Of a stretch of 64,000 nt of DNA, positions 1 through 12,751 are shown piece after piece. A model generated the notes under the pieces. That model did no database searches. It saw only the letters and a list, made by a program, of their open reading frames with translations, and was not told the origin of the DNA. The translations under genes were made by a program, and so were the position numbers. Numbering within the stretch: the first letter of the stretch is position 1; each line of letters begins with the position of its first letter. The stretch covers positions 1 to 64,000 of the forward strand of contig JAHIXK010000013.1 in NCBI GenBank assembly GCA_018815245.1, in the 5' to 3' direction. Origin of the DNA: Gammaproteobacteria bacterium (GTDB lineage Bacteria; Pseudomonadota; Gammaproteobacteria; Burkholderiales; Burkholderiaceae_B).

Positions 1-359
1 CGAGTGGTTTCTGCGTGGTCTGCGACTCATGATTTCTCCTTTCCTGGCCAACATTGTTGACCCAAAAAGCAGAGCTGTCATCTTCTATCCATATGTCCGA
101 ATTTCCGGAGCCTGCTCTACCTACGACTTGCCCCTCGCTTTCGCAACGTATTGCGAACATGGCATTCAGAAACTCGTGATTTCCTCAAGCTGCTCTTGTA
201 CGCTACGCAAGAAATTAAAAATGGTGCCGCCGGTGGCGATGTCACAGATTCTTCATCGGTTCGTCACGCGCATGTAACACAGCCCCCCTACCATGGCCTG
301 GCAATTCGATTTTGTAATCGTCATCGCAGTTTGATTGAGAAACCAACAAAGGGCTCGCC
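1..359. other. Non-coding left edge upstream of the phosphite operon
   Basis: No convincing gene is visible here; the open frames are short, lack ribosome binding sites and resemble no family I know. A CTGTCAT half-site at 75-81 is followed 11 bases later by TATCCAT at 86-92, which is a weak resemblance to a PhoB box, about 270 bases before ptxA. The ribosome binding site of ptxA (AAAGGG) lies at the right end of this stretch. Confidence 0.4.
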
Positions 360-2026
<1,667 letters not shown>

Positions 2027-2057
2027 GCACACATCGCACAAGCAATCAGGAGTCTTT

Positions 2058-2855
2058 ATGCACGCTCAATTCGCACCGCTGCTGGACCGCCGGCAGCGCG
2101 CCTGGAACCGCTCGATGGTCTCCCTGGCCACCGTGCTGGCAATCGTCATCGCTTGCTGGTATTACGTTGGCCTGTTCGACGCCGAACGCCTGGGCGAAGG
2201 GATCCCCAGCCTGGCGTCACTGGTCGGCGAGATGTTTCCGCCGAACTTCAGCCAGGCCGGCTCCTGGGTCAAGCCACTGCTCGACACCCTGGCCATGAGC
2301 GTGGCCGGCACGGCGGTTGCGGTGCTGCTGTCGCTGCCACTGGCGGTGCTGGCAGCGCGCAATACCACGCCGCATCCGCTGGTCTACCAATGCGCCCGGG
2401 GCCTGCTGAACGGCTTGCGCTCGATCCCTGAACTCATCATGGGCATCGTGTTCGTCGCTGCAGTCGGCTTCGGCGCGCTGCCGGGCGTGCTGGCGCTTGG
2501 CCTGCATTCGGTGGGCATGGTCGGCAAGTTCTTTGCCGAAGCCATCGAACATGCCGACCGCGCGCCGGTGGAAGCCGCGCGCGCCGCCGGTTGCAGCCCG
2601 CTGCAGGTGATCTTCCACGGCATCCTGCCGCAAGTCTTGCCGCAGATGGCCGATACAGCGATCTACCGCTGGGAATACAACTTCCGCGCCTCGACGGTCA
2701 TGGGCATGGTCGGCGCCGGCGGCATCGGCTTCGAACTGATGGGATCGCTGCGCATCATGCAATACACGGATGTCTCGGCAATCCTGATCGTCATCCTCGT
2801 CATGGTGAGCCTGGTCGACGCCCTGAGCGCCTTCCTGCGCCGCACCTTCAAGTAA
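2058..2855 (+). CDS. ptxC: Phosphite/phosphonate ABC transporter permease
   Basis: A PhnE/PtxC-type inner-membrane permease of 265 residues with about six hydrophobic segments and the EAA-type loop (EAARAAGCSPLQVIFHGILP) that docks on the ATPase. The open frame extends upstream to 1974, but the ATG at 2058 is preferred because it follows a CAGGAG ribosome binding site and starts after the ptxB stop. It completes an ATPase, binding protein and permease set. The downstream dehydrogenase starts 21 bases later, consistent with one transcript. Confidence 0.9.
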   Translation: MHAQFAPLLDRRQRAWNRSMVSLATVLAIVIACWYYVGLFDAERLGEGIPSLASLVGEMFPPNFSQAGSWVKPLLDTLAMSVAGTAVAVLLSLPLAVLAARNTTPHPLVYQCARGLLNGLRSIPELIMGIVFVAAVGFGALPGVLALGLHSVGMVGKFFAEAIEHADRAPVEAARAAGCSPLQVIFHGILPQVLPQMADTAIYRWEYNFRASTVMGMVGAGGIGFELMGSLRIMQYTDVSAILIVILVMVSLVDALSAFLRRTFK

Positions 2856-2876
2856 ATCATTTACGGAAATCGTTAC

Positions 2877-3884
2877 ATGAAACCCAAAGTCGTGCTCACC
2901 CACTGGGTGCATCCGGAAATCATCGAACTGCTGCAAGGCGTTGCCGAAGTCATTCCCAATACTTCGCGCGACACCCTGCCGCGCGAAGAAGTGCTGGCGC
3001 GCGCGCGCGATGCGCAAGCCATCATGGTCTTCATGCCCGACAGTATCGACGACGCCTTCCTGCAAGCCTGCCCGCAACTGAAAATCGTCGGCGCGGCGCT
3101 CAAGGGTTATGACAACTTCGACGTCGCCGCCTGCACCCGCCGCGGCATCTGGTTTTCCATCGTGCCCGACCTGCTGACCATCCCGACCGCGGAACTGACC
3201 ATCGGCCTGCTGCTCGGGTTAACACGCCGCATGCTGGAAGGTGACCGCCAGATCCGCAGCAGCGGCTTTCAGGGGTGGCTCCCGCAGCTGTACGGCACGG
3301 GGCTCACCGGGCGTACGATCGGCATCATCGGCATGGGTGCGGTCGGCCGCGCCATCGCACAGCGGCTGGCTGGCTTCGACATGCAGATTCTGTATTGCGA
3401 CCACGTTGCCCTGCCGACCGAACAGTCTGCGCAATGGAATGCGCGCCAAGTCGAACTCGATGAATTGCTGGCCGCCAGCGATTTCATCGTGCCGATGCTG
3501 CCGATGACGCCGGAGACCCTGCACCTGATCAATGCTGACACGCTCGCCAGGATGCGTCCGGGAAGCTACCTGGTGAATGCCTGCCGCGGCTCGGTGGTCG
3601 ATGAAGCCGCAGTCGTTGCAGCGCTTGCCAGCGGCCGCCTTGCCGGCTATGCCGCCGACGTGTTCGAGCTGGAAGAATGGGCACGGCCAGACCGGCCGCG
3701 CGCCATTCCGCAAGCCTTGCTGGACAATCCTGCACAAACTTTTTTCACGCCGCACCTCGGTTCGGCCGTTGCCGAAGTGCGCCTGGAGATCGAACGTCAG
3801 GCCGCCTGCAACATTATCCAGGCGCTCAATGGCGAGGCGCCTGCCGGCGCCATCAACCGTCCCGGCAGGAAGACGGCGACATGA
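2877..3884 (+). CDS. ptxD: NAD-dependent phosphite dehydrogenase
   Basis: A 335-residue D-2-hydroxyacid dehydrogenase-type enzyme that oxidises phosphite to phosphate with reduction of NAD. It aligns by eye along its whole length with PtxD of Pseudomonas stutzeri. The catalytic residues known there are present: Lys76 (in ALKGYDNFD), Arg237 (in [13 protein letters not shown]), Glu266 and a His at 293 (in TPHLGSAV). The dinucleotide motif GMGAVG lies at 152-157. Position 175, which sets cofactor choice, is Asp, so NAD preference is expected. Together with ptxABC it lets the cell use phosphite as sole phosphorus source. Its TGA overlaps the LysR start. Confidence 0.95.
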
Positions 3885-4768
3885 TCAACCTGGAGTGCGT
3901 CGCCACATTCCTTGCGGTCGCAAATCAGGGGGGATTCCGCGAGGCGGCCAGGCAGACTGGCCAGTCGCAACCGGCCGTCACGCAACATATCAAGCGGCTC
4001 GAGCAATCGCTCAAGGTGGCGCTGATCCAGCGCAGCAATGCCGGCTGCACACTGACGCCGGAAGGCACTTCATTCCTGCCCTACGCTAAACATCTGGTAC
4101 GCGCCGGCGCCCGCGCGCAAGCCTTGTTCGACAAGACAGTCCTCAGCATCGGCGCCAGTTCCAATACCGGCATCTACTTGCTGCAGCCGCGTCTGCGCGC
4201 CTACCGCGACCGCGTTGCGCACAAGCTCCAGATAGCTATTGGCAGCAACAACCGCATCGCCGAGCAACTGCAGAATTTCGAGATCGACGTCGCCATCATG
4301 GAATGGTGGGATCCACGCCCCGGCTTTACCGCCACCGTCTGGCATCGCGAGGAATTGCAGGTCATCGTGCCGCCCGACCATCCCTGGGCCGGGCGCACCA
4401 GCATTCCACGCAACTGGCTGTGCGGGCAGGCGCTACTGGGCGGCGAAGCCGGCAGCGGCACAGGGCGGCTGCTGCAGTCCTATTTCGGCGACGATGCGCG
4501 CAACATCGGGATCGCCATGCAACTTGGCAGCACCGAAGCGGTCAAGCATGCGGTGCGGGCCGGACTCGGCATCTCGCTCGTGATGGCGGCCGCCGTGACC
4601 GATGAAAACCGCGATGGCAGTCTGCGGGCAATTCCCCTCGAAGGCGGCGCACTGCACAAGGACCTGTACGTGATCAGCCGCGAGGACCTCTTGCCGGACG
4701 CGCCGGCGCGTCATTTTTGCGAATTTTTGCTGCAGGGTGAAACCGCGCCGCTGGCGCCCGCACCCTAG
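3881..4768 (+). CDS. ptxE: LysR-family regulator of the phosphite operon
   Basis: A 295-residue LysR-type regulator with an N-terminal winged helix-turn-helix ([20 protein letters not shown] near residues 21-40) and a C-terminal effector-binding domain. The ATG at 3881 forms an ATGA overlap with the ptxD stop, so it is co-translated with the dehydrogenase; longer upstream starts would run inside ptxD. Position as the last gene after ptxABCD matches ptxE in characterised clusters. Whether it responds to phosphite is inferred. Its stop overlaps the stop of the convergent oxidoreductase remnant. Confidence 0.85.
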
Positions 4769-5249
4769 CTGATCCGGGCGTCGCGAAACAGCGCCTTGAG
4801 CTCGCGCGGCTGACAACGCCAGTACTGCGGCGGCGCATCCACTTGCGCGCCCAGTTCGGCGGCCGCATGCCAAGGCCAGCGCGGGTCGTACAGTATGCCG
4901 CGCGCCAGCGCCACCATGTCGGCCTGGCCGCTGGCGACGATGGACTCGGCATGCCGTGCTTCGGTAATCAGGCCGACGGCAATGGTCGGCATGCCGACGT
5001 CCCGCTTCAATCTTTCCGCGAACGGCACCTGGTAACCCGGGCTTAGGGAAATTTTTTGCTGTGGCGACAGCCCGCCGGTGGACACGTCCAGAAAATCGCA
5101 GCCGCGCACTTTCAGAGCGGCGGCAAATGCCAAAGTTTGCTCGATATCCCAGCCATCTTCGACCCAGTCGGTTGCCGAGACGCGGATGCCGGCCGGCCGG
5201 AAAGGCTGCACGCACCGCCTCGAATACTTCCAAGGGAAAACGCATGCGA
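4765..5249 (-). pseudogene. Truncated, frameshifted NADH:flavin oxidoreductase (OYE family)
   Basis: Only the C-terminal half of an old yellow enzyme (YqjM/NamA-like) remains. The minus-strand frame ending at 4765 carries RVSATDWVEDGWD, the FLDVSTGG stretch and the FMN phosphate-binding region GQADMVALARGILYDPRWP. The preceding family segment RMRFPLEVFEAVRAAFPA sits in another frame, so there is a frameshift near 5190-5200. The N-terminal half is missing, because homology stops at 5250 where an IS21-like terminal repeat begins. Probably not functional. The fragment is GC rich like ptxABCDE and may have travelled with it. Confidence 0.8.
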
Positions 5250-5278
5250 TGTTGATTTGCACCCAAATTTGACCCGGG

Positions 5279-5303
5279 GGGGATGCGGACAAAATCTTGG
5301 ACT
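5279..5303 (+). repeat. Left terminal inverted repeat of the IS3-family element
   Basis: Twenty-five bases identical to the reverse complement of 6860-6884. The exact outer boundary is blurred by a run of seven G (5276-5282). Confidence 0.85.
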
Positions 5304-5306
5304 TTT

Positions 5307-6842
5307 TTACGTTAAAAATCCCAGACTTTCACGGTATTCAATCGGGCTAAGGTAGCCCAGTGAGCTTTTGATTCTTTTTTCGTTATACCAGCGAATGTAG
5401 GCATCAAGCTTGGCGATGAATTCCTCAACTGAAGTTGAGCGCCAGTCTTTAGGGTAAAACATTTCTGTTTTTAACCTGCCAAAGAAGCCTTCACAAGCCG
5501 CATTATCTGGCGAGCAAGCTTTGCGTGACATCGACCTTGTCAGATTGGCTTTTGAGACCCTAGTAAGCCAACCTGGCCATCGATAGTGACCACCTCTATC
5601 TGAATGAATGATGGTGTTTTTTGCATCAGTCACAGTCTCAATTGCTGCGTCGAGCATGCCGTTTACTAGCTCTGCGTCAGGACTGGTACTGATGGACCAG
5701 CTAATCACCATTCCATCGAAACAATCAATCATCGGCGATAGATACACTTTTCCTGCTGGAATCTGAAATTCCGAAATATCCGTTAGCCACTTTTCGTTTG
5801 GAGCGGTCGCAGTAAAATCGCGGTTGATTAGGTTCTCTGGGGCTGGGCTAACCTCACCGACATAGGACGCATATCGACGTTTTTTGGGTCTGGCTGCCTT
5901 GAGTCCGCCTTGCTTCATGAGCCGACGTACAACTTTTTCAGAGAGAAACACTCGTTCTCTTCCAAGAGCTGCTTTTAGTCGACGATAACCATATGAATGA
6001 TGGTTGTCTTCAAACACCTCGGCCAGTGTGTTTCTAACCTCAGCATACTTGTCCCCTACACGGGAAGGTGACCGATGATAAAAATACGAACTGCGCGGCA
6101 TGTCTAATTTTTTGAGTAACTCAGTCAAGTCATATTCTTCTCTGAGGGCGTCAATCAACATTGTCTTCTCGCTATTGCACAGAATTTGCAGGTCGACGCC
6201 CAGGTCTTTATTTAGCAGTTCGTTGGCCTTCTTCAACAAATCGTGCTCTAGTTTCAAATCGCGAATATCGCGTTGCAGCTCCTGGATTTGCTTCTCTAGT
6301 TCGAGCCGATTTGAATCCGCATGGGAACCTTTGTCATGTTTCATGGATGCCGCGTCCTCCTTCCCCAACAACTGTTTTTTCCAGTTGTATAGAGTTACTC
6401 GGTCCACGTCCAGCTTTTCTGCCAACACCTGGGCACTTTCATTTCTTGTACAAAGTTCAAAGACAGCAGCCCGTTTGAAAGCCAGCGAAGCGGCCTCCCT
6501 GCGAACTTTGCCTACGACTCGTTGTTTCGCTTCGGGATACAGCTCGCAGACCCAGTCAGAAAGCTTCTGGCGTGAAGGGTAGCCCAAAGACCTAATCGTC
6601 GCAGCAATACATCGGCCGTTAGCCATGAAATGAGAAACAGCGGTCTTTTTCTGCTCCTCTGAATACTTTGGCTTGGTCCTTTGGTAACGCTTGAGCACAT
6701 CACCATTTTGCTCAAAATCAACACACCATGCTTTCAAGGCGTTCTTTGTTGGATAACCCAACTGGCGTATGGTCACCTTGCAGTTTTTTCCTGTTCTCAG
6801 AAAAAGTTGCACTGCCCTAAGACGTTCTTCGTATGAATACAT
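5307..6842 (-). CDS. IS3-family transposase, single reading frame
   Basis: A 511-residue transposase. The N-terminal third has two repeated helix-turn-helix-like units (YSYEERLRAVQLF, then YSEEQKKTAVSHF) and a third HTH around VLAEKLDVDRVTLYNWKKQL, followed by a coiled coil near residues 175-215. The C-terminal part is an rve-type DDE integrase core: first Asp in WLTDISEF, second Asp in IIHSDRGGHY, and the Glu in CEGFFGRLKTE. Most IS3 relatives make this protein by frameshifting between two ORFs; here it is one uninterrupted frame. It is likely active as far as sequence shows. The start ATG lies about 18 bases inside the right inverted repeat. Confidence 0.9.
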   Translation of the reverse strand: MYSYEERLRAVQLFLRTGKNCKVTIRQLGYPTKNALKAWCVDFEQNGDVLKRYQRTKPKYSEEQKKTAVSHFMANGRCIAATIRSLGYPSRQKLSDWVCELYPEAKQRVVGKVRREAASLAFKRAAVFELCTRNESAQVLAEKLDVDRVTLYNWKKQLLGKEDAASMKHDKGSHADSNRLELEKQIQELQRDIRDLKLEHDLLKKANELLNKDLGVDLQILCNSEKTMLIDALREEYDLTELLKKLDMPRSSYFYHRSPSRVGDKYAEVRNTLAEVFEDNHHSYGYRRLKAALGRERVFLSEKVVRRLMKQGGLKAARPKKRRYASYVGEVSPAPENLINRDFTATAPNEKWLTDISEFQIPAGKVYLSPMIDCFDGMVISWSISTSPDAELVNGMLDAAIETVTDAKNTIIHSDRGGHYRWPGWLTRVSKANLTRSMSRKACSPDNAACEGFFGRLKTEMFYPKDWRSTSVEEFIAKLDAYIRWYNEKRIKSSLGYLSPIEYRESLGFLT

Positions 6843-6859
6843 GGACTACCTCCTAAAGT

Positions 6860-6884
6860 AGTCCAAGATTTTGTCCGCATCCCC
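6860..6884 (-). repeat. Right terminal inverted repeat of the IS3-family element
   Basis: Twenty-five bases, perfect reverse complement of the left end at 5279-5303. They lie just upstream of the transposase start. Confidence 0.85.
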
Positions 6885-7049
6885 TCTTTACCCTTAGTGG
6901 GTCAATTTTGGATGCAACTCAACATTCTGTCTACAAAACCACTCTAGTGGAGCGGGTTGCTGTGCATGCAGCTCTAAGTTGTGCTTCAGCCACTCTTAGC
7001 GGTGGAGATTGCGGCAGTGGAGCACTTGCTGGGGGATTCACAAAGATCA

Positions 7050-7264
7050 CTTCCCCTTACATTGCAGAGTTTGCGGGAAGCGATACCAACGAAAGCTTCA
7101 AAGGTAAACTCAGGGATGAATGCCTGCCTATGGAGTTATTTCGAACCTGACTAGAAGCTCGAGTAATCATTGAAGACTAGAGACAGCATTATCATGCGGC
7201 AAGATCGCACCCCAGTTCGAACTATCTCACCCCGAACAAATTCGGGCGGAATTGTAAAATAATT
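7050..7264 (+). pseudogene. Decayed C-terminus of an IS3-family (IS407-like) transposase OrfB
   Basis: In one frame the sequence reads NESFKGKLRDECL, then LEARVIIED, then RQHYHAARSHPSSNYLTPN, the well-known C-terminal tail of IS3-family OrfB proteins. Two in-frame stops break it: TGA at 7148-7150 (where homologues have Arg) and TAG at 7178-7180 (where homologues have Trp). No start and no catalytic core remain. It is an old IS scar in the island, older than the intact IS3 element next to it. Confidence 0.75.
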
Positions 7265-7399
7265 TACCAACTGAAACCAGAAAGTTAAGTTTTCAGTGGT
7301 GGGAAATTCCCCAGCAGGTCATTCTCATTGTAAGCAATAGGTTGCGATACAAAATACTCATATTAAATGCATGCGTTGTCGCACGCGGGGGGTTATTCA

Positions 7400-9382
7400 G
7401 TGCGTATTGAATCTATAACGTTGTCGGGTTTCCGTTGTTTTGGCCCAGAATCAATAACAATTCCGATTGCATCAGAAATTACGGCCGTCGTTGGTCCAAA
7501 CGCAGCTGGCAAAACAGCACTACTGCACGCATTATCAAAAATGTTCGGCGTGTCGCGTTCGCAACGTACAGTCCTTCGTTCAGATTTCCACTCGGGAGTA
7601 GAGGACGACCCCGGTGATCGCAAAGCCAGAGATTTGTTTATCGATGTGCTGATAGGGTTGCACGAGCTAGCCGATGCCACTGCGACACCTGAGGTCATTG
7701 CTCCCTCTTTCCGGCATATGTTAATTGTGCGAGAAGGGGACTCGCCGGTTTGCCGCCTGCGCCTCGAAGCTAGGTGGGAAGATGACGGAACGATTGAAGG
7801 TGAGATTTCACAGGAGCTTTTCTGGGTTGATACGCTTGACGATGAGCCGGATAAGGATTCTTGTCACCCAGTTCTTGCGGCGGATCGTGGCTTAATCCAG
7901 CTCTACTACACACCTGCCAGCCGGGACGCAGCAGCTCAGGTTAAGGCAACCACCGGAGCACTCGCGGCCCGCCTACTTCGTGCTATTGAATGGTCATCCG
8001 AAACAGAAGAGGCCGTTCAAGATGCAACCGAAAACCTTGCTAGCGCATTCGAGGGTGAATCGGCGATTGCCGCGATCAGTAAGGCCTTGCAAGCAAGATG
8101 GTTGGGCCTCCACGATGACGTGGCTGATTCTAAACCTAGGCTCAGCCTAGTTAGTCGTCGGTTCGAGGAGGTCGTCAACAAGATTGCCGTCATCTTTGAG
8201 CAAGGACCAGGCGGTCGGGAGCGTGGCGTAGATGATTTAAGCGATGGACAACAATCGCTTTATTATTTCGCTTTGGCTGCGGCCGTTTTCGATCTAGAGC
8301 GTGAGGTGGTGGCCGGTAAGGTCGAAGGATTTCGTGAAGACACGCTACATATACCCGCACTGACGTTGTTCGCCCTGGAGGAGCCGGAGAACCATCTCTC
8401 GCCTTACTATCTCTCCCGAATCATTGGGCAGGTTCGCTCACTGACCGATGCGGGAGGGGCACAAGCTATTATTACCAGCCATTCACCGGCAGTGCTCAGC
8501 CGCGTAAATCCGCTTGAAGTTCGCTACTGCCGCTGCGATCCGGAAACACGTGTCTCGTCAGTGAAGAAGATATTGCTTCCGACAGGGACTGACGAGGCCA
8601 CCAAGTTCGTTCGTGGTGCCATGCTTGCTTACCCAGAACTATACTTCGCCCGCTTCGTTCTACTCGTGGAGGGCGATTCGGAGCGTATCGTACTCCCATT
8701 TCTGGCGAAGTCGCTTGATCTCCTGATTGATCCAGCCTTTGTCGCGATCGTCCCCTTGGGCGGACGGCATACTCAGCATTTTTGGCGCTTGTTGAAACAG
8801 CTAGGTATTCCACACGCAACCCTACTGGATCTTGATCTGGGACGTGAGGGTGGTGGCTTTGGAAGAGTGAAGACGGCAATCGAAAAACTCATCGAATTTG
8901 GCGTGCCAAAAGCTGATCTCTTGAAGATTGAAGATGGTGTATTGTCCGATGAGAATTTCGAAGCGATGCACACTTGGCAAGATCCAGAAGATCGCAAGAT
9001 CTTGAAGGGCTGGATAGACTGTCTCAAACCACACGGCGTCTATTTCTCAGCACCGCTCGACCTTGATCTAGCCATGCTGGAGGCGTTCACCGATGCATAC
9101 CAAGCTATCATCCCAAAGGGGGGCGGTCCAAAAATGGCGGTAGACAAGGCTGCAGAGGTGGTTCTCGGGACTGCCGGTCCAGGTCTCACGCTCTATACCG
9201 GACCGTTCAAGGACTATCCCGAACTGCTGCCAGCCTATCGCTATCACTTTCTGACCAACAGCAAACCGGCAACTCACCTTGCCGCCTTGACACATATCAA
9301 AAAAAGGGACTTACAGGAGAACATGCCGACTATACTGGCGGAGCTTCTTAGCCATATCTCAAAGTCTTTGCGGAGGGACTAA
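7400..9382 (+). CDS. Gabija GajA-like OLD-family ATPase/TOPRIM nuclease
   Basis: About 660 residues. The N-terminal ABC-type ATPase has Walker A GPNAAGKT (residues 32-39), signature LSDGQQS (about 280) and Walker B LFALEEPENHLSP (about 323), then an ITSHSP switch. The C-terminal half is a TOPRIM nuclease domain with the acidic residue in LLVEGDSER (about 424) and a DLD motif (about 477). An OLD protein paired with a downstream UvrD helicase is the class 2/Gabija arrangement, an anti-phage system in which GajA cleaves DNA. The GTG at 7400 is preferred over the ATG at 7367: it follows a GGGGGG tract and begins right at the conserved RIESITLSGF start. The protein is longer than the Bacillus GajA, so it may be a diverged relative. 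Confidence 0.8.
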   Translation: MRIESITLSGFRCFGPESITIPIASEITAVVGPNAAGKTALLHALSKMFGVSRSQRTVLRSDFHSGVEDDPGDRKARDLFIDVLIGLHELADATATPEVIAPSFRHMLIVREGDSPVCRLRLEARWEDDGTIEGEISQELFWVDTLDDEPDKDSCHPVLAADRGLIQLYYTPASRDAAAQVKATTGALAARLLRAIEWSSETEEAVQDATENLASAFEGESAIAAISKALQARWLGLHDDVADSKPRLSLVSRRFEEVVNKIAVIFEQGPGGRERGVDDLSDGQQSLYYFALAAAVFDLEREVVAGKVEGFREDTLHIPALTLFALEEPENHLSPYYLSRIIGQVRSLTDAGGAQAIITSHSPAVLSRVNPLEVRYCRCDPETRVSSVKKILLPTGTDEATKFVRGAMLAYPELYFARFVLLVEGDSERIVLPFLAKSLDLLIDPAFVAIVPLGGRHTQHFWRLLKQLGIPHATLLDLDLGREGGGFGRVKTAIEKLIEFGVPKADLLKIEDGVLSDENFEAMHTWQDPEDRKILKGWIDCLKPHGVYFSAPLDLDLAMLEAFTDAYQAIIPKGGGPKMAVDKAAEVVLGTAGPGLTLYTGPFKDYPELLPAYRYHFLTNSKPATHLAALTHIKKRDLQENMPTILAELLSHISKSLRRD

Positions 9383-9384
9383 GC

Positions 9385-11289
9385 ATGGCTATGTCGTCGC
9401 GACGGGTCCACCCGGAGGATTGGAAGCCAGTGGGCGTGAATGCGCTTGAAACGAATGCGTTAGAGGTTGTCCGTTCGACAGAGAATCGATCCGTCATTGC
9501 CGGCCCCGGCGCGGGTAAGACGGAACTCCTTGCGCAACGCGCAGCTTATCTTCTTCAAACAGGTGCTTCACCTGCGCCAAGGCGCATCCTCGCGATCAGT
9601 TTCAAGCGCGATGCTGCAACAAACCTTGCTACGCGGGTACGCCAACGCTGCCATCGTGACCATGCTGAACGCTTCGACTCGATGACGTTCGACGCCTTTG
9701 CGAAAGGGTTGATTGACCGCTTCGGTCAGGCATTACCTGAGCGTTGGCGGCCTCGGCCCGACTATGAAATCATTTTTCCCGGTGATCGAGATTACCGTGA
9801 GTTCCTGTCTCGACAGGTCGGGGTACCTCCAGCTTCGGTCGGCACTCACGCTGATATCCAAGCTATATCTGTGAAGGCTTTCGAGCGTCGGCACCTGGTG
9901 GGATCACCACTCCCGGTAGATGATTGGCAACATCCAACACCTGCCCAGTGGGCTGCGAGTCGTTTCTGGCAAATTTCGCTCCATGATGGCAAGAAAAGTG
10001 TCTTGTCATTTCCCATGATCGGGCGACTTGCCGAAATACTGTTGCGGGTCAATCCGATGGCGACTCATGCGCTACGACTCACGTACTCGCACCTCTTCAT
10101 GGACGAGTTTCAGGATACGACACACATCCAGTACGACTTGGTCCGCACCGTTTTCCTCGGCACAGACACTGTGATTACTGCTGTTGGAGATAATAAGCAG
10201 CAGATCATGCGCTGGGCAATGGCGATGGACGATCCGTTCACTGCCTTTGAGGGAGACTTCCGCGCAACACGAACGCCGCTCTACAACAACTATCGCTCGT
10301 CAAAGGAGCTTGTGCGTATCCAGCACGTCCTGGCGCAGGCTTTGGACGCCCGAGCCGTGGCGCCGGTGTCAATGACGGCAGGCAGCATCGCCGGAGATAG
10401 TTGCCTTATCTTGAATTTTTCGACACCGGAGATTGAAGCTAGGCGCTTGGCCGATTTTGTCGTAGGCGAGATGAAGACTCACGCACTTGGTCCCCGCGAT
10501 TTTGTCTTGCTAGTCCGACAGAAGGCGAGCAACTATGCCGGTGTTCTAGAGCCAGCGTTTTTGGCAGCAGGAATTTCTCTGCGCAACGAAGCTGGAATGA
10601 TTGGATCGATCATTCTCCAAGACTTACTTGTGGAAGACCTCTCCCAACTGATTGTGGCAGTCCTACGTCTTACAATAACCGCTCGGGCGGGGCGGCATTG
10701 GACAAGGTGCATGGAGGCACTCATCGCCCTACGTGGTGTCGCTCCAGATGATGAGGTCGCTCAGGCCAGGCTATCCCAGGAATTGGATGCGTACGTACGT
10801 AAACTTAGCGTCTCCCATCCGAATCCTCCAAGATCTAAGGCTGTATCACGCTCGATTGTGGACGATATCTTGAAGTTTATTGGTCGTGAGAAGCTGATCG
10901 TTGTTCATCCAGCTTACGGACAAGGAGATTGGCTAGAGAAAGTGCTCGATTCGGCAGCGGAGCATTTGCTAGCGTCGTCGGTCGATGATGTTCAGTGGCC
11001 ATCAGCTCTTGATGGCTATGAAGGCATTCATGCCATTCCTCTAATGACTATTCATAAAAGCAAGGGTCTCGAATACCACAGTGTGGTATTCATTGGGTTG
11101 GATGATGGTGCATGGTGGAGTTTCTCAAATGACCAAATAGAGGCCACCGCTGGGTTCTTTGTGGCATTCACACGCGCAAAACAACGCGTTGTTTTTACGT
11201 ACTGCGCGCAGCGCGGTACGCGAACAAAGATTGCAACCCTTTATCAACTGCTAAAGACTGCCGGAGTCAATAGTGTCAATGTTGCCTGA
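9385..11289 (+). CDS. Gabija GajB-like UvrD/PcrA superfamily 1 helicase
   Basis: A 634-residue SF1 helicase. Visible motifs in order: Walker A AGPGAGKTELL (39-49), motif Ia region ISFKRDAATNLATRV, motif II DEFQDT (240-245), motif III VGDNKQQIMRWAMA (267-280), motif IV region YNNYRSS, motif V TIHKSKGLEY and motif VI VAFTRAKQRVVF near the C-terminus. It starts two bases after the GajA-like stop, with GGAGGG seven bases upstream, so the two are co-translated. In Gabija, GajB forms a complex with GajA and senses or processes DNA ends. The paired layout, rather than any unique motif, supports a defence role. Confidence 0.82.
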   Translation: MAMSSRRVHPEDWKPVGVNALETNALEVVRSTENRSVIAGPGAGKTELLAQRAAYLLQTGASPAPRRILAISFKRDAATNLATRVRQRCHRDHAERFDSMTFDAFAKGLIDRFGQALPERWRPRPDYEIIFPGDRDYREFLSRQVGVPPASVGTHADIQAISVKAFERRHLVGSPLPVDDWQHPTPAQWAASRFWQISLHDGKKSVLSFPMIGRLAEILLRVNPMATHALRLTYSHLFMDEFQDTTHIQYDLVRTVFLGTDTVITAVGDNKQQIMRWAMAMDDPFTAFEGDFRATRTPLYNNYRSSKELVRIQHVLAQALDARAVAPVSMTAGSIAGDSCLILNFSTPEIEARRLADFVVGEMKTHALGPRDFVLLVRQKASNYAGVLEPAFLAAGISLRNEAGMIGSIILQDLLVEDLSQLIVAVLRLTITARAGRHWTRCMEALIALRGVAPDDEVAQARLSQELDAYVRKLSVSHPNPPRSKAVSRSIVDDILKFIGREKLIVVHPAYGQGDWLEKVLDSAAEHLLASSVDDVQWPSALDGYEGIHAIPLMTIHKSKGLEYHSVVFIGLDDGAWWSFSNDQIEATAGFFVAFTRAKQRVVFTYCAQRGTRTKIATLYQLLKTAGVNSVNVA

Positions 11290-11401
11290 CCGTCACAGCG
11301 ATATCAATCAATGGAATTCCTTCGGTAGAAGACACCCGGGTATGGAACTGTGCCTAAAGGGAAAGCCCTGAGGAGCCGGCGCTGGGCGCAGAAACCCAAG
11401 C

Positions 11402-11490
11402 GACAAGTACGATGCCAACGGCAATATTCGTACTGGTGGCGGAGGTACGGTGAGCTGTATGAGTTTTGACATGATCACTACGAGTCGCAG
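11402..11490 (+). pseudogene. Short fragment of an RHS/YD-repeat protein gene
   Basis: One frame reads DKYDANGNIRTGGGGTVS then MSFDM, which resembles the conserved YDxxGN...GGRTVxYxSFDM segment of RHS-repeat proteins. Nothing before or after continues the family, so if real it is a scrap left by the end of the transposon. The match is short and judged by eye. The rest of 11290-11470 shows no gene. Confidence 0.35.
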
Positions 11491-11543
11491 GGTAGTGGGT
11501 CGCATATTTAGATGTGTAGTCGCATCTTCAAATAGAAATAACA
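11466..11543 (-). repeat. Terminal region of a tni/Tn7-like transposon at the comM junction
   Basis: Read from the junction inward (minus strand) the end begins TGTTATTTCTATTTGAAGAT and then has GCGACTACAC, TATGCGACCCAC and CTGCGACTCG in series, i.e. three spaced copies of a TGCGAC-type word. This layout, with TG at the tip and repeated transposase-binding words, resembles tni-type ends (for example Tn402/Tn5053, TGTCATTTTCAGAAGACGAC). The tip abuts comM codon 289 exactly. The five comM bases beside it (11544-11548, GCCGC) are the predicted target duplication. Confidence 0.6.
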
Positions 11544-12410
11544 GCCGCCGCCTATCAAGGCGGCCATCGAGCTGCTGGGGTGGGGGTTTCGAAACGGACG
11601 CGCCTGGCTGAACTGGTCGCTTTCCCCCTTCAGGCTGCGGATGGCGGAAATATCAAGCGAGTCTTCAAAGGGCAGGGCGGGCAGCAAGCCTCCCACGCGC
11701 TGGGCCAACATGGATTTTCCGCTGCCGGGCGGCCCCACAAGGCGAATGTGGTGTTGCCCTGCTGCGGCTGCCAGCAAAGCATGCTTGGCTGTTTGGTGAC
11801 CAATTACCTCGGCCATGTCGAACAACTGTGGCGTGTGAGTATTTTGAATGTGGACAGCGGTTTGCTGTTCCAGCGGCTTGCCATGCCCAACTAGGTGGGC
11901 TGCGGCCTCAAACAGACTATTGGCACCAAACACGGCAATGTCGGGCACGGTGGCTGCCAGTGCGGCCTGGGTTTTTGGCATCATCAACTTCAATGGGCGT
12001 TTGCCTTGGCGTGCTTCTTTACGGGCAGCCACGGCAAGGGCAAACGGGCTTCTAACGCCGGTCAGGGCGCCAGAGAGTGAAAGCTCCCCGGCGAACACCC
12101 AGTTCTCCAGCTCGGCTTTGGGCAGTTGACCCGATGCTGCGGCAATGCCCAGGGCAACCGCCAGGTCAAATGCTGCACTGCCTTTGGGCAGGTCGGCGGG
12201 CGCCAGGTTAACGGTAATTCGTTGCGTTGGAAATTCAAAGCCGCTGTTGAGCAGGGCTGAACGCACGCGTTCTTTGGATTCCCGAATTTCAGTGTCGGGC
12301 AAGCCCACCAGTGCAAACGAGGGCAGGCCCGCTGACAAGTGCACTTCAATTTGAACAGGAACAGGGCGAACGCCCACGAATGTGAGGCTGTGCAGGGTTG
12401 CTAAAGGCAT
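11544..12410 (-). pseudogene. comM: comM (YifB), 5' part, cut by the island
   Basis: ComM is a ring-forming AAA+ helicase that promotes branch migration during natural transformation. Full-length proteins have about 500 residues; only 289 remain. The N-terminal Lon-like fold region (GLPSFALVGLPD...ESKERVRSAL) and Walker A GPPGSGKS (226-233) are present, and the frame breaks right after SSSMAALIGGG, before the Walker B and later AAA+ parts. The 11 codons that follow to a stop at 11508 come from the transposon end. ComM activity should be lost unless the island excises. The upstream neighbour ubiK supports this as the native locus. Confidence 0.92.
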
Positions 12411-12520
12411 GGGGAGTGCTTGGCGCTTAAACCCAACCGATTATCCCCAATCCTGCGGTTTCGGCAAACGGGTGCTTCGGTCTGCGTCACCCGAAGGGTG
12501 ATGCATAGCCTGTTGATTGA

Positions 12521-12751
12521 TCAGGTGCGTTTTTCAAGTTCCGCCACGCGCAATTCCAGTGCATGCACCTTTTCGCGCAATCGGTTCAGCACTTCGCGCT
12601 GAATCTCGAAATCTTCCAGGCTGACAAACTCCATGTCCTGCAAACCTTGCCGAATCAGCTGTGTGATTGGGTTTTCAAGATTCTGCAGTCCTTTTGCATT
12701 CAGCATTTCGCTGACTTTTGCCTGAATGGACTCAAATGGATTGTCTGCCAA
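12521..12751 (-). CDS. ubiK: Ubiquinone biosynthesis accessory factor UbiK (BMFP domain)
   Basis: A 76-residue protein of the BMFP/YqiC family. The N-terminal amphipathic helix (NPFESIQAKVSEML) is followed by a C-terminal coiled coil (EVLNRLREKVHALELRVAEL), the usual trimerisation module. In E. coli UbiK works with UbiJ to help aerobic coenzyme Q synthesis at the membrane. Length is typical. It lies on the same strand as comM, about 110 bases before the comM start. Confidence 0.88.
   Translation of the reverse strand: MADNPFESIQAKVSEMLNAKGLQNLENPITQLIRQGLQDMEFVSLEDFEIQREVLNRLREKVHALELRVAELEKRT

What the first reader, a model, noticed from the sequence alone, without database searches (positions are those of the whole stretch)
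11466..11548. Tn7/tni-like island end sitting exactly in comM
The comM frame stops at codon 289 and the foreign DNA begins with a TG tip followed by three spaced TGCGAC-type words. That is how tni/Tn7-like ends look. comM is the documented target of AbaR/Tn6022-type islands; as far as I recall, those enter the same Gly-Gly-Gly region. Here such an element would carry phosphite oxidation and phage defence instead of antibiotic resistance, in a betaproteobacterium.
Basis: partly seen in the sequence, partly recalled or inferred. Interest (0 to 1): 0.85.

Follow-up and report, generated by a model that had tools for sequence, protein, structure and literature searches.

The report
Tn7-like defence island splitting comM
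A Limnobacter bacterium carries a Tn7-like jumping element that has cut the DNA-uptake gene comM in two and brought in genes that look like phosphite use and phage defence; it is a new member of a known kind of element, sitting at the same spot in comM as the resistance islands of Acinetobacter.

Summary
The window starts at base 1 of a contig. The missing half of comM lies on another contig of the same genome. Directly inside it are an inverted partner end (TGTTAATT...TGCGACT), the predicted 5-bp duplication (GCCGC on both sides) and tnsA-tnsB-tnsC-tniQ. The flanks minus one duplicate give an unbroken 512-residue ComM. A second Limnobacter (CACIAM 66H1) holds an 18.4-kb sister element on one contig, at the same nucleotide, with the comM selector tnsF; fourfold-site divergence is 0.06-0.14 in tnsABC but 0.61 in comM, so the two are not one old inherited insertion. 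This is a TnsA-bearing Tn7-like transposon of the published Tn6022/TnsF kind, not a Tn402-type tni element and not a deletion. New: the host, the ptx phosphite cargo (99.6% identical to an Azonexus plasmid) beside Gabija, and a copy that looks stranded (tniQ broken by a repeat, tnsF absent from the assembly). By-product: six TnsF-type elements all sit 59 nt before the Walker-B Asp codon of comM, while a clade without TnsF sits at 57-65 nt. Not shown: continuity across the assembly gap, and activity.

The parts
11544..12410 (-). comM, 5' part (codons 1-289); its 3' part is at G000:C3:45266-45886, minus strand
11544..11548 (.). 5-bp target-site duplication GCCGC (GCGGC in comM sense); second copy beside the other end on C3
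11446..11543 (-). transposon end on the comM 5' side: TGTTATTT tip and three TGCGAC words; similarity to the sister element's end stops at about 11446
9385..11289 (+). gajB-like UvrD helicase of Gabija (cargo)
   Evidence: 762 bits
7367..9382 (+). gajA-like ATPase/TOPRIM nuclease of Gabija (cargo)
   Evidence: 805 bits
5279..6884 (.). IS3-family insertion sequence nested in the island, 31-bp inverted ends; transposase 5307-6842 on the minus strand
4765..5250 (-). truncated NADH:flavin oxidoreductase gene; similarity to the Azonexus plasmid ends at 5250, just before the IS3-family element
3881..4768 (+). LysR-family regulator (ptxE-like); start taken from the Azonexus annotation
2877..3884 (+). 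ptxD, phosphite (phosphonate) dehydrogenase
   Evidence: 574 bits to 6ih2; no NCBIfam model passed its cut-off
1974..2855 (+). ptxC/phnE-like permease (the Azonexus start would be at about 2058)
1166..2026 (+). ptxB/phnD-like binding protein
360..1169 (+). ptxA/phnC-like ABC ATPase
1..119 (.). repeat at the contig start, shared with the end of contig C10; beyond it the assembly is broken

Best explanation
The comM break is one end of a TnsA-bearing Tn7-like transposon of the Tn6022/TnsF kind. It entered comM in the Gly-Gly-Gly codons, 59 nt before the Walker-B Asp codon, by transposition with TnsA+TnsB, licensed by TnsC and TniQ, and made a 5-bp duplication. Shown here: both ends, the duplication, the rejoinable gene, tnsA-tnsB-tnsC and the start of tniQ, and a sister element at the same nucleotide in another Limnobacter with full-length tniQ and a tnsF homologue. 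Inferred: that TnsF, binding comM near Walker B and bridging to TniQ as published for Tn6022, chose the site; that ComM is inactive, which should lower exchange of divergent DNA by transformation; that the ptx genes let phosphite serve as a phosphorus source and gajAB block phages; that this copy is now stranded, because tniQ is cut by a repeated sequence and tnsF is absent from the assembly.
For: Inverted ends and GCCGC duplication on both sides, and a 512-residue frame when the flanks are joined. tnsA, tnsB, tnsC, tniQ by Pfam; TnsB matches solved TnsB proteins. Sister element in Limnobacter sp. CACIAM 66H1, 18,438 bp, duplication TCCGC, with tnsF. tnsA/B/C 96.5-97.4% identical in DNA against 73-76% for comM; fourfold sites differing 8/103, 16/273, 19/140 against 50/82. 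All six TnsF-type elements measured, this one included, lie 59 nt from the Walker-B Asp codon. AbaR25 duplication accgc. Published need for TnsA, B, C, TniQ and TnsF and for the Walker-B segment in Tn6022.
Against: The two sides lie on different contigs, both ending in repeats, so the continuity of the island is inferred. No TnsF gene was found in this genome, and only about 254 codons of tniQ are left before the repeat. The exact left-end motif has no second copy. No TnsE homologue was found in the assembled part with the Derxia and CACIAM 66H1 sequences, although comM elements usually carry one (PMC11406308, passage). Activity is untested.
Confidence: 0.92

Rival explanations
1. A deletion or chromosomal rearrangement happens to end in comM.
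For: The two comM halves are on different contigs.
Against: Both junctions carry matching inverted ends and the same 5-bp duplication, the flanks rejoin in frame, and the sister genome has the same junctions on one contig.
Confidence: 0.01
2. The comM island is real, but the ptx block at 216-5250 reached contig C4 by another rearrangement at the repeat (window 1-119) and the island proper is smaller or differently ordered.
For: C4 starts in a repeat shared with the end of C10; the ptx block is 99.6% identical to a plasmid.
Against: ptx, the IS3-family element, gajAB and the transposon end are continuous on C4 from 119 to 11543, and comM is single-copy in the assembly, so this stretch must lie inside the broken gene unless there was a further inversion.
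Confidence: 0.06
3. The copy is intact and mobile; the broken tniQ and the missing tnsF are assembly gaps only.
For: C3 stops within 120 bp of the start of the repeat, and the genome is 96% complete in 17 contigs.
Against: The repeat replaces tniQ sequence from about codon 254 on the contig itself, and the same 118-119 bases sit at the ends of C2, C7 and C11, as insertion-sequence copies would. tnsF was not found.
Confidence: 0.15
4. A Tsy-type element (tyrosine recombinase plus TnsF) or an RNA-guided (CAST) element made the insertion in comM.
For: Both kinds are reported in comM (PMC10293859, PMC11406308; passages).
Against: tnsA-tnsB-tnsC-tniQ, inverted ends and a 5-bp duplication are present; the eight cargo or IS proteins and four tns proteins examined by Pfam show no tyrosine recombinase and no Cas protein.
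Confidence: 0.02

Closest known systems
Tn6022 / AbaR backbone of Acinetobacter (TnsABC-TniQ-TnsF, comM-targeting)
   Same: Same target gene and same site (accgc for AbaR25; GCCGC and TCCGC in Limnobacter), same gene order with a TnsF homologue in the sister element, 5-bp duplication.
   Different: TnsB about 42-43% identical to Acinetobacter plasmid copies and in another TnsB clade; cargo is phosphite oxidation and Gabija, with no resistance gene recognised in the assembled part; tniQ cut and tnsF not assembled in this copy.
Sister element in Limnobacter sp. CACIAM 66H1 (NZ_LUJK01000033.1)
   Same: Same nucleotide of comM, nearly the same ends, tnsABC 96.5-97.4% identical in DNA.
   Different: Cargo there is a patatin-like phospholipase of the CBASS-effector kind, a type II methyltransferase and a GHKL-ATPase protein; tniQ and tnsF whole; a TnsE-like gene in two pieces.
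Tn7-like elements of Xanthomonas campestris plasmids and of Derxia gummosa
   Same: Nearest TnsB relatives outside Limnobacter in these searches (64%; 52%), same clade (98/99), TnsF homologues.
   Different: The Xanthomonas copies listed are on plasmids; Derxia is in comM with other cargo.
ptx cluster of Azonexus hydrophilus NCP973 plasmid (NZ_CP151407.1)
   Same: Bases 216-5250 of the window, 99.6% identical over 5,043 columns.
   Different: On the plasmid it continues into a whole NADH:flavin oxidoreductase gene and is not beside tns genes in the 33 kb opened.
Tsy transposons and type I-B1 CASTs in comM
   Same: Same target gene (PMC10293859, PMC11406308; passages).
   Different: They use an active tyrosine recombinase or a crRNA; none seen here.

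Membership tests
Tn7-like transposon | TnsA endonuclease beside a TnsB DDE transposase | tested here: met
   Pfam TnsA N and C domains and Mu-type C domain over cut-off; TnsB like solved TnsB
Tn7-like transposon | TnsC (TniB-type ATPase) and a TniQ/TnsD protein | tested here: met
   PF05621 and PF06527 over cut-off; tniQ truncated at about codon 254 in this copy
Tn7-like transposon | inverted TG...CA ends with several TnsB-type sites, and a 5-bp duplication | tested here: met
   binding by TnsB itself not tested
Tn6022 / TnsF-type comM element | insertion in comM just before Walker B | tested here: met
   59 nt before the Walker-B Asp codon, as in 5 other TnsF-type elements; duplication NCCGC as in AbaR25
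Tn6022 / TnsF-type comM element | tnsF after tniQ | tested here: inconclusive
   not found in this genome, but the tniQ side runs into an assembly gap; present in the sister with 97-99.7% identical TnsA/B/C proteins
Tn6022 / TnsF-type comM element | TnsF has zinc fingers and an inactivated tyrosine-recombinase domain | tested here: inconclusive
Tn6022 / TnsF-type comM element | TnsE near the other end | tested here: inconclusive
   none in the assembled part; two-piece remnant in the sister. The TnsE label rests on position and the published description, not on a family match
AbaR resistance island | antibiotic or metal resistance cargo | tested here: not met
   none among the 8 cargo or IS proteins examined; the gap is unread
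Tn402/Tn5053 tni transposon | no TnsA; TniA-TniB-TniQ-TniR (recalled) | tested here: not met
   TnsA present
Gabija | GajA ATPase/TOPRIM next to GajB UvrD helicase | tested here: met
phosphite oxidation (ptx) cluster | PtxD dehydrogenase with phosphonate-type ABC transporter and LysR regulator | tested here: met
   activity not tested

The most novel reading that the evidence does not exclude
comM is read by at least one protein selector besides TnsF. One clade of Tn7-like elements (6 rows in the TnsB tree, 100/97) sits in comM; in the five of them read from end to end there is no TnsF homologue and no guide-like copy of comM. The distance to Walker B is a ruler that separates the two kinds: 59 nt in 6 of 6 TnsF-type elements (the present one included), but 60, 60, 60, 57 and 65 nt in the five without TnsF. 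On this reading TniQ itself (350-550 aa) learned comM in that clade, and the Gly-Gly-Gly/Walker-B segment is a convergent homing site.
Probability: 0.4. Interest if true: 0.55.

Novelty: new member of a known kind. Interest (0 to 1): 0.4.

Why it matters
It shows that the comM-homing Tn7-like lineage, best known from resistance islands of Acinetobacter, also moves between environmental betaproteobacteria with other goods: a whole phosphite-oxidation cluster and phage defence. Two Limnobacter with the element at one nucleotide, and host genes far more diverged than the transposase genes, are a clean case of repeated homing or exchange. Loss of ComM should lower exchange of divergent DNA, a route by which the island could be removed (argued for A. 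baumannii in PMC11472951, passages read). The side result, comM elements without TnsF at a different distance from Walker B, makes the question of how many selectors have converged on comM directly testable.

Tried and rejected
Extending the contig leftwards is not possible: the window starts at base 1 of contig C4. The missing side was found by searching the genome for the comM C-terminal domain.

Dropped: that the C-terminal parts of the long TniQ proteins of the TnsF-less clade are tyrosine-recombinase-like (by eye). Pfam showed no such family, and a profile comparison with TnsF gave probability 0.1. Dropped: a guide RNA for comM in those elements. The best matches of the comM flanks (450 nt on each side) in the fetched loci of 9 genomes are 12-16 nt, and the only exact 16-nt one lies outside the element (three best per genome printed); no closely spaced direct repeats of 24 nt or more in the 3 stretches examined. 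Rfam found nothing in 1-12600 at gathering scores. The repeat at the end of C3 has no match among plasmids; its family is unknown.

Not resolved: the duplication in 3 of 14 element pairs (G296 masked with N, G265, G327). G211 was read by eye, because its tips are TCT. G265, whose element was not read in full, lies at 59 nt by its 3' junction although no TnsF was seen in the locus read; it is left out of the five and weakens the ruler somewhat. In a first script G077 came out at 57 nt because the second of two overlapping GGCGG was taken, measured from the element tip, gives 60. The TnsC tree leaves the TnsF-less clade unresolved. The TnsF HMM was built from four of the five elements that it then found; only G165 is an independent hit. 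The Acinetobacter TnsF did not enter that HMM, as no start codon lay in the range I gave. G058 is cut in comM, but its TnsB-like gene is on another contig and no link was shown.

Full report
What was checked. The window is bases 1-64000 of contig C4 (147,083 bp) of a 3.2-Mb genome in 17 contigs, so nothing lies to its left on that contig. comM runs on the minus strand from 12410 and keeps its frame for 289 codons to 11544; beyond that the frame reads 11 foreign residues to a stop. The foreign DNA starts with TGTTATTTCTATTTGAAGATGCGAC and carries TGCGAC at 11524-11519, 11504-11499 and 11489-11484. Such a cluster occurs once in the window; 200 simulated windows gave 2 in all.

The other half. 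A search of the same genome with the comM C-terminal domain found one place, C3:45287-45559; the whole 3' part lies at C3:45266-45886. The comM 5' part plus the 3' part minus one GCCGC translate to an unbroken 512-residue ComM. Of 60 genomes searched (own included), 56 had a comM match, and 51 of these 56 have an open frame of 498 aa or more. The five others are this genome, G004, G058 (cut at the same codons by another TG-tipped end), G010 (two pieces) and G038 (a 40-residue weak match).

The machine. Directly inside the C3 end lie tnsA (221 aa), tnsB (644), tnsC (296) and tniQ. At about codon 254 of tniQ a repeat begins; the same 118-119 bases sit at the ends of contigs C2, C7 and C11, and a 75% relative at the start of C2. 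C3 ends there. A search of the genome with the TnsF of a close relative found nothing (the query matches its own source locus). The C4 side also starts in a repeat, 119 bp shared with the end of C10. The assembled island is therefore 4,496 bp on C3 plus 11,543 bp on C4, and the gap between them is unseen.

A sister with everything in one piece. G004, which is Limnobacter sp. CACIAM 66H1 (NZ_LUJK01000033.1; Burkholderiales by NCBI), has both comM halves on one 34.6-kb contig around an 18,438-bp element with duplication TCCGC and tnsA-tnsB-tnsC-tniQ (364 aa)-tnsF (508 aa). TnsA, B and C are 97.7, 97.4 and 99.7% identical to those of the window's genome. tniQ is 93.5% identical in DNA over the 756 columns before the repeat; tnsA, tnsB and tnsC are 97.0, 97.4 and 96.5%; the flanking comM is 73% (3' part) and 76% (5' part). 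At fourfold degenerate sites 8 of 103, 16 of 273 and 19 of 140 differ in tnsA, tnsB and tnsC, against 50 of 82 in the first 150 codons of comM. The two strains therefore did not inherit one ancient insertion with its flanks: related elements homed to the same nucleotide, or were exchanged later.

What kind. TnsA makes it Tn7-like; TnsB matches solved TnsB proteins. Faure et al. 2023 (PMC10293859; abstract, passages and the sections on Tn6022 transposition, the comM target, the ends and the discussion read) showed that Tn6022 of Acinetobacter uses TnsA, B, C, TniQ and TnsF to enter comM, that all five matter, that TnsF binds comM, and that the Walker-B segment is required. The TnsF homologue of the sister matches 78 plasmid records, 50 of them Acinetobacter, at 22-39% identity in the 40 rows listed; in the Acinetobacter record opened it follows tnsA, tnsB, tniB and tniQ. 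AbaR25 in comM is flanked by accgc (PMC3691203, passage read), against GCCGC and TCCGC here. A TnsB tree of 25 rows (ultrafast bootstrap/SH-aLRT) places the two Limnobacter elements with a Xanthomonas plasmid element and Derxia (98/99), apart from the clade with the Acinetobacter element (97/94).

Cargo. ptxA-ptxB-ptxC, ptxD and a LysR regulator fill 360-4768. Bases 216-5250 are 99.6% identical (11 mismatches, 11 gap columns in 5,043) to a plasmid of Azonexus hydrophilus NCP973 from groundwater (NZ_CP151407.1, Rhodocyclales), so this block moved recently between two betaproteobacterial orders; the direction is not known. A truncated NADH:flavin oxidoreductase gene and an IS3-family element (5279-6884) follow, then gajA and gajB (PADLOC 805 and 762 bits). 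Benler et al. 2021 (PMC8649781, passages read) report OLD/UvrD (Gabija) pairs as the next most frequent defence cargo after restriction-modification, IS3-family elements in about 30% of Tn7-like transposons, and few complete pathways; the island is typical except for the complete phosphite cluster. Searches of the paper library for Tn7-like with phosphite listed no paper, and for phosphite, ptxD, transposon and genomic island three (listing and starts of abstracts seen).

A by-product. Of the 20 best TnsB matches outside this genome among 399 genomes of the order, 12 have the 3' part of comM on the tnsA side. An HMM finds TnsF in five of the elements examined (G004, G091, G377, G211 and, cut by a contig end, G165) and in none of the five read from end to end, G077, G238, G187, G156 and G251 (best E 0.094). 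These five and G265 form one clade in the TnsB tree (100/97); the TnsC tree leaves it unresolved. Duplications were read for 11 of 14 pairs: GCGGC, GCGGA or GAGGC in G000, G004, G091, G165 and G211 (G211 by eye), ACAGC in G377; GGCGG in G156, G187 and G077, GGCAG in G238, TTGGC in G251. Measured from the tnsA-side junction to the Walker-B Asp codon, the six TnsF-type elements all lie at 59 nt, even G377 whose duplication differs; the five without TnsF lie at 60, 60, 60, 57 and 65; G265, not fully read, at 59. A fixed distance fits a selector that binds at Walker B, as published for TnsF. No guide-like match to comM was found in these elements. A review (PMC11406308, passages read) names comM as target of Tn6022 and of crRNA-guided type I-B1 elements; a TnsF-less, guide-less protein route is not in the passages I read, and my searches for comM with Tn7-like (7 papers) and with TniQ and TnsD (20 of 39 listed) show no title about it.

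How it probably works. By analogy with Tn6022, TnsF bound comM near Walker B, TniQ joined it to TnsC, and TnsA+TnsB pasted the element in, with a 5-bp repair. ComM is cut before Walker B and should be inactive; published work links such cuts in A. baumannii to lower transformation (PMC11472951, passages read). Shown here: the structure of the insertion and the presence of the genes. Inferred: the role of TnsF, loss of ComM function, function of the cargo, and immobility of this copy.

Noticed in passing
window 216-5250: The ptx block is 99.6% identical to a plasmid of Azonexus hydrophilus NCP973 (Rhodocyclales, groundwater), a recent exchange between orders.
   Followed up: partly
L074, L083, L076, L075, L084 (G077, G238, G187, G156, G251): A clade of Tn7-like elements inserted in comM with no TnsF and no guide-like comM match, at 57-65 nt from Walker B instead of 59.
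   Followed up: partly
L129/L066, L128, L126, L121, L122, L075, L125, near the comM 5' side end in 6 of these 7 elements; more internal in G156 (L075): Proteins of 541-639 aa, weakly alike across elements, probably the TnsE described for comM elements; label by position only.
   Followed up: partly
L086:10225-12116: The sister Limnobacter element has a TnsE-like gene in two pieces, and a CBASS-type patatin and a type II methyltransferase as cargo.
   Followed up: no
L033:12318-12436: A repeated sequence cuts tniQ; identical copies end contigs C2, C7 and C11, and a 75% relative starts C2. Family not identified.
   Followed up: partly
L020 (G058:C13): comM of a genome of another family is cut at the same codons by a different TG-tipped end at a contig end.
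   Followed up: no
L078 (G062:C7): comM of G062 lies in several pieces, one (residues 76-225) beside a tnsA: an insertion elsewhere in comM or a second event.
   Followed up: no
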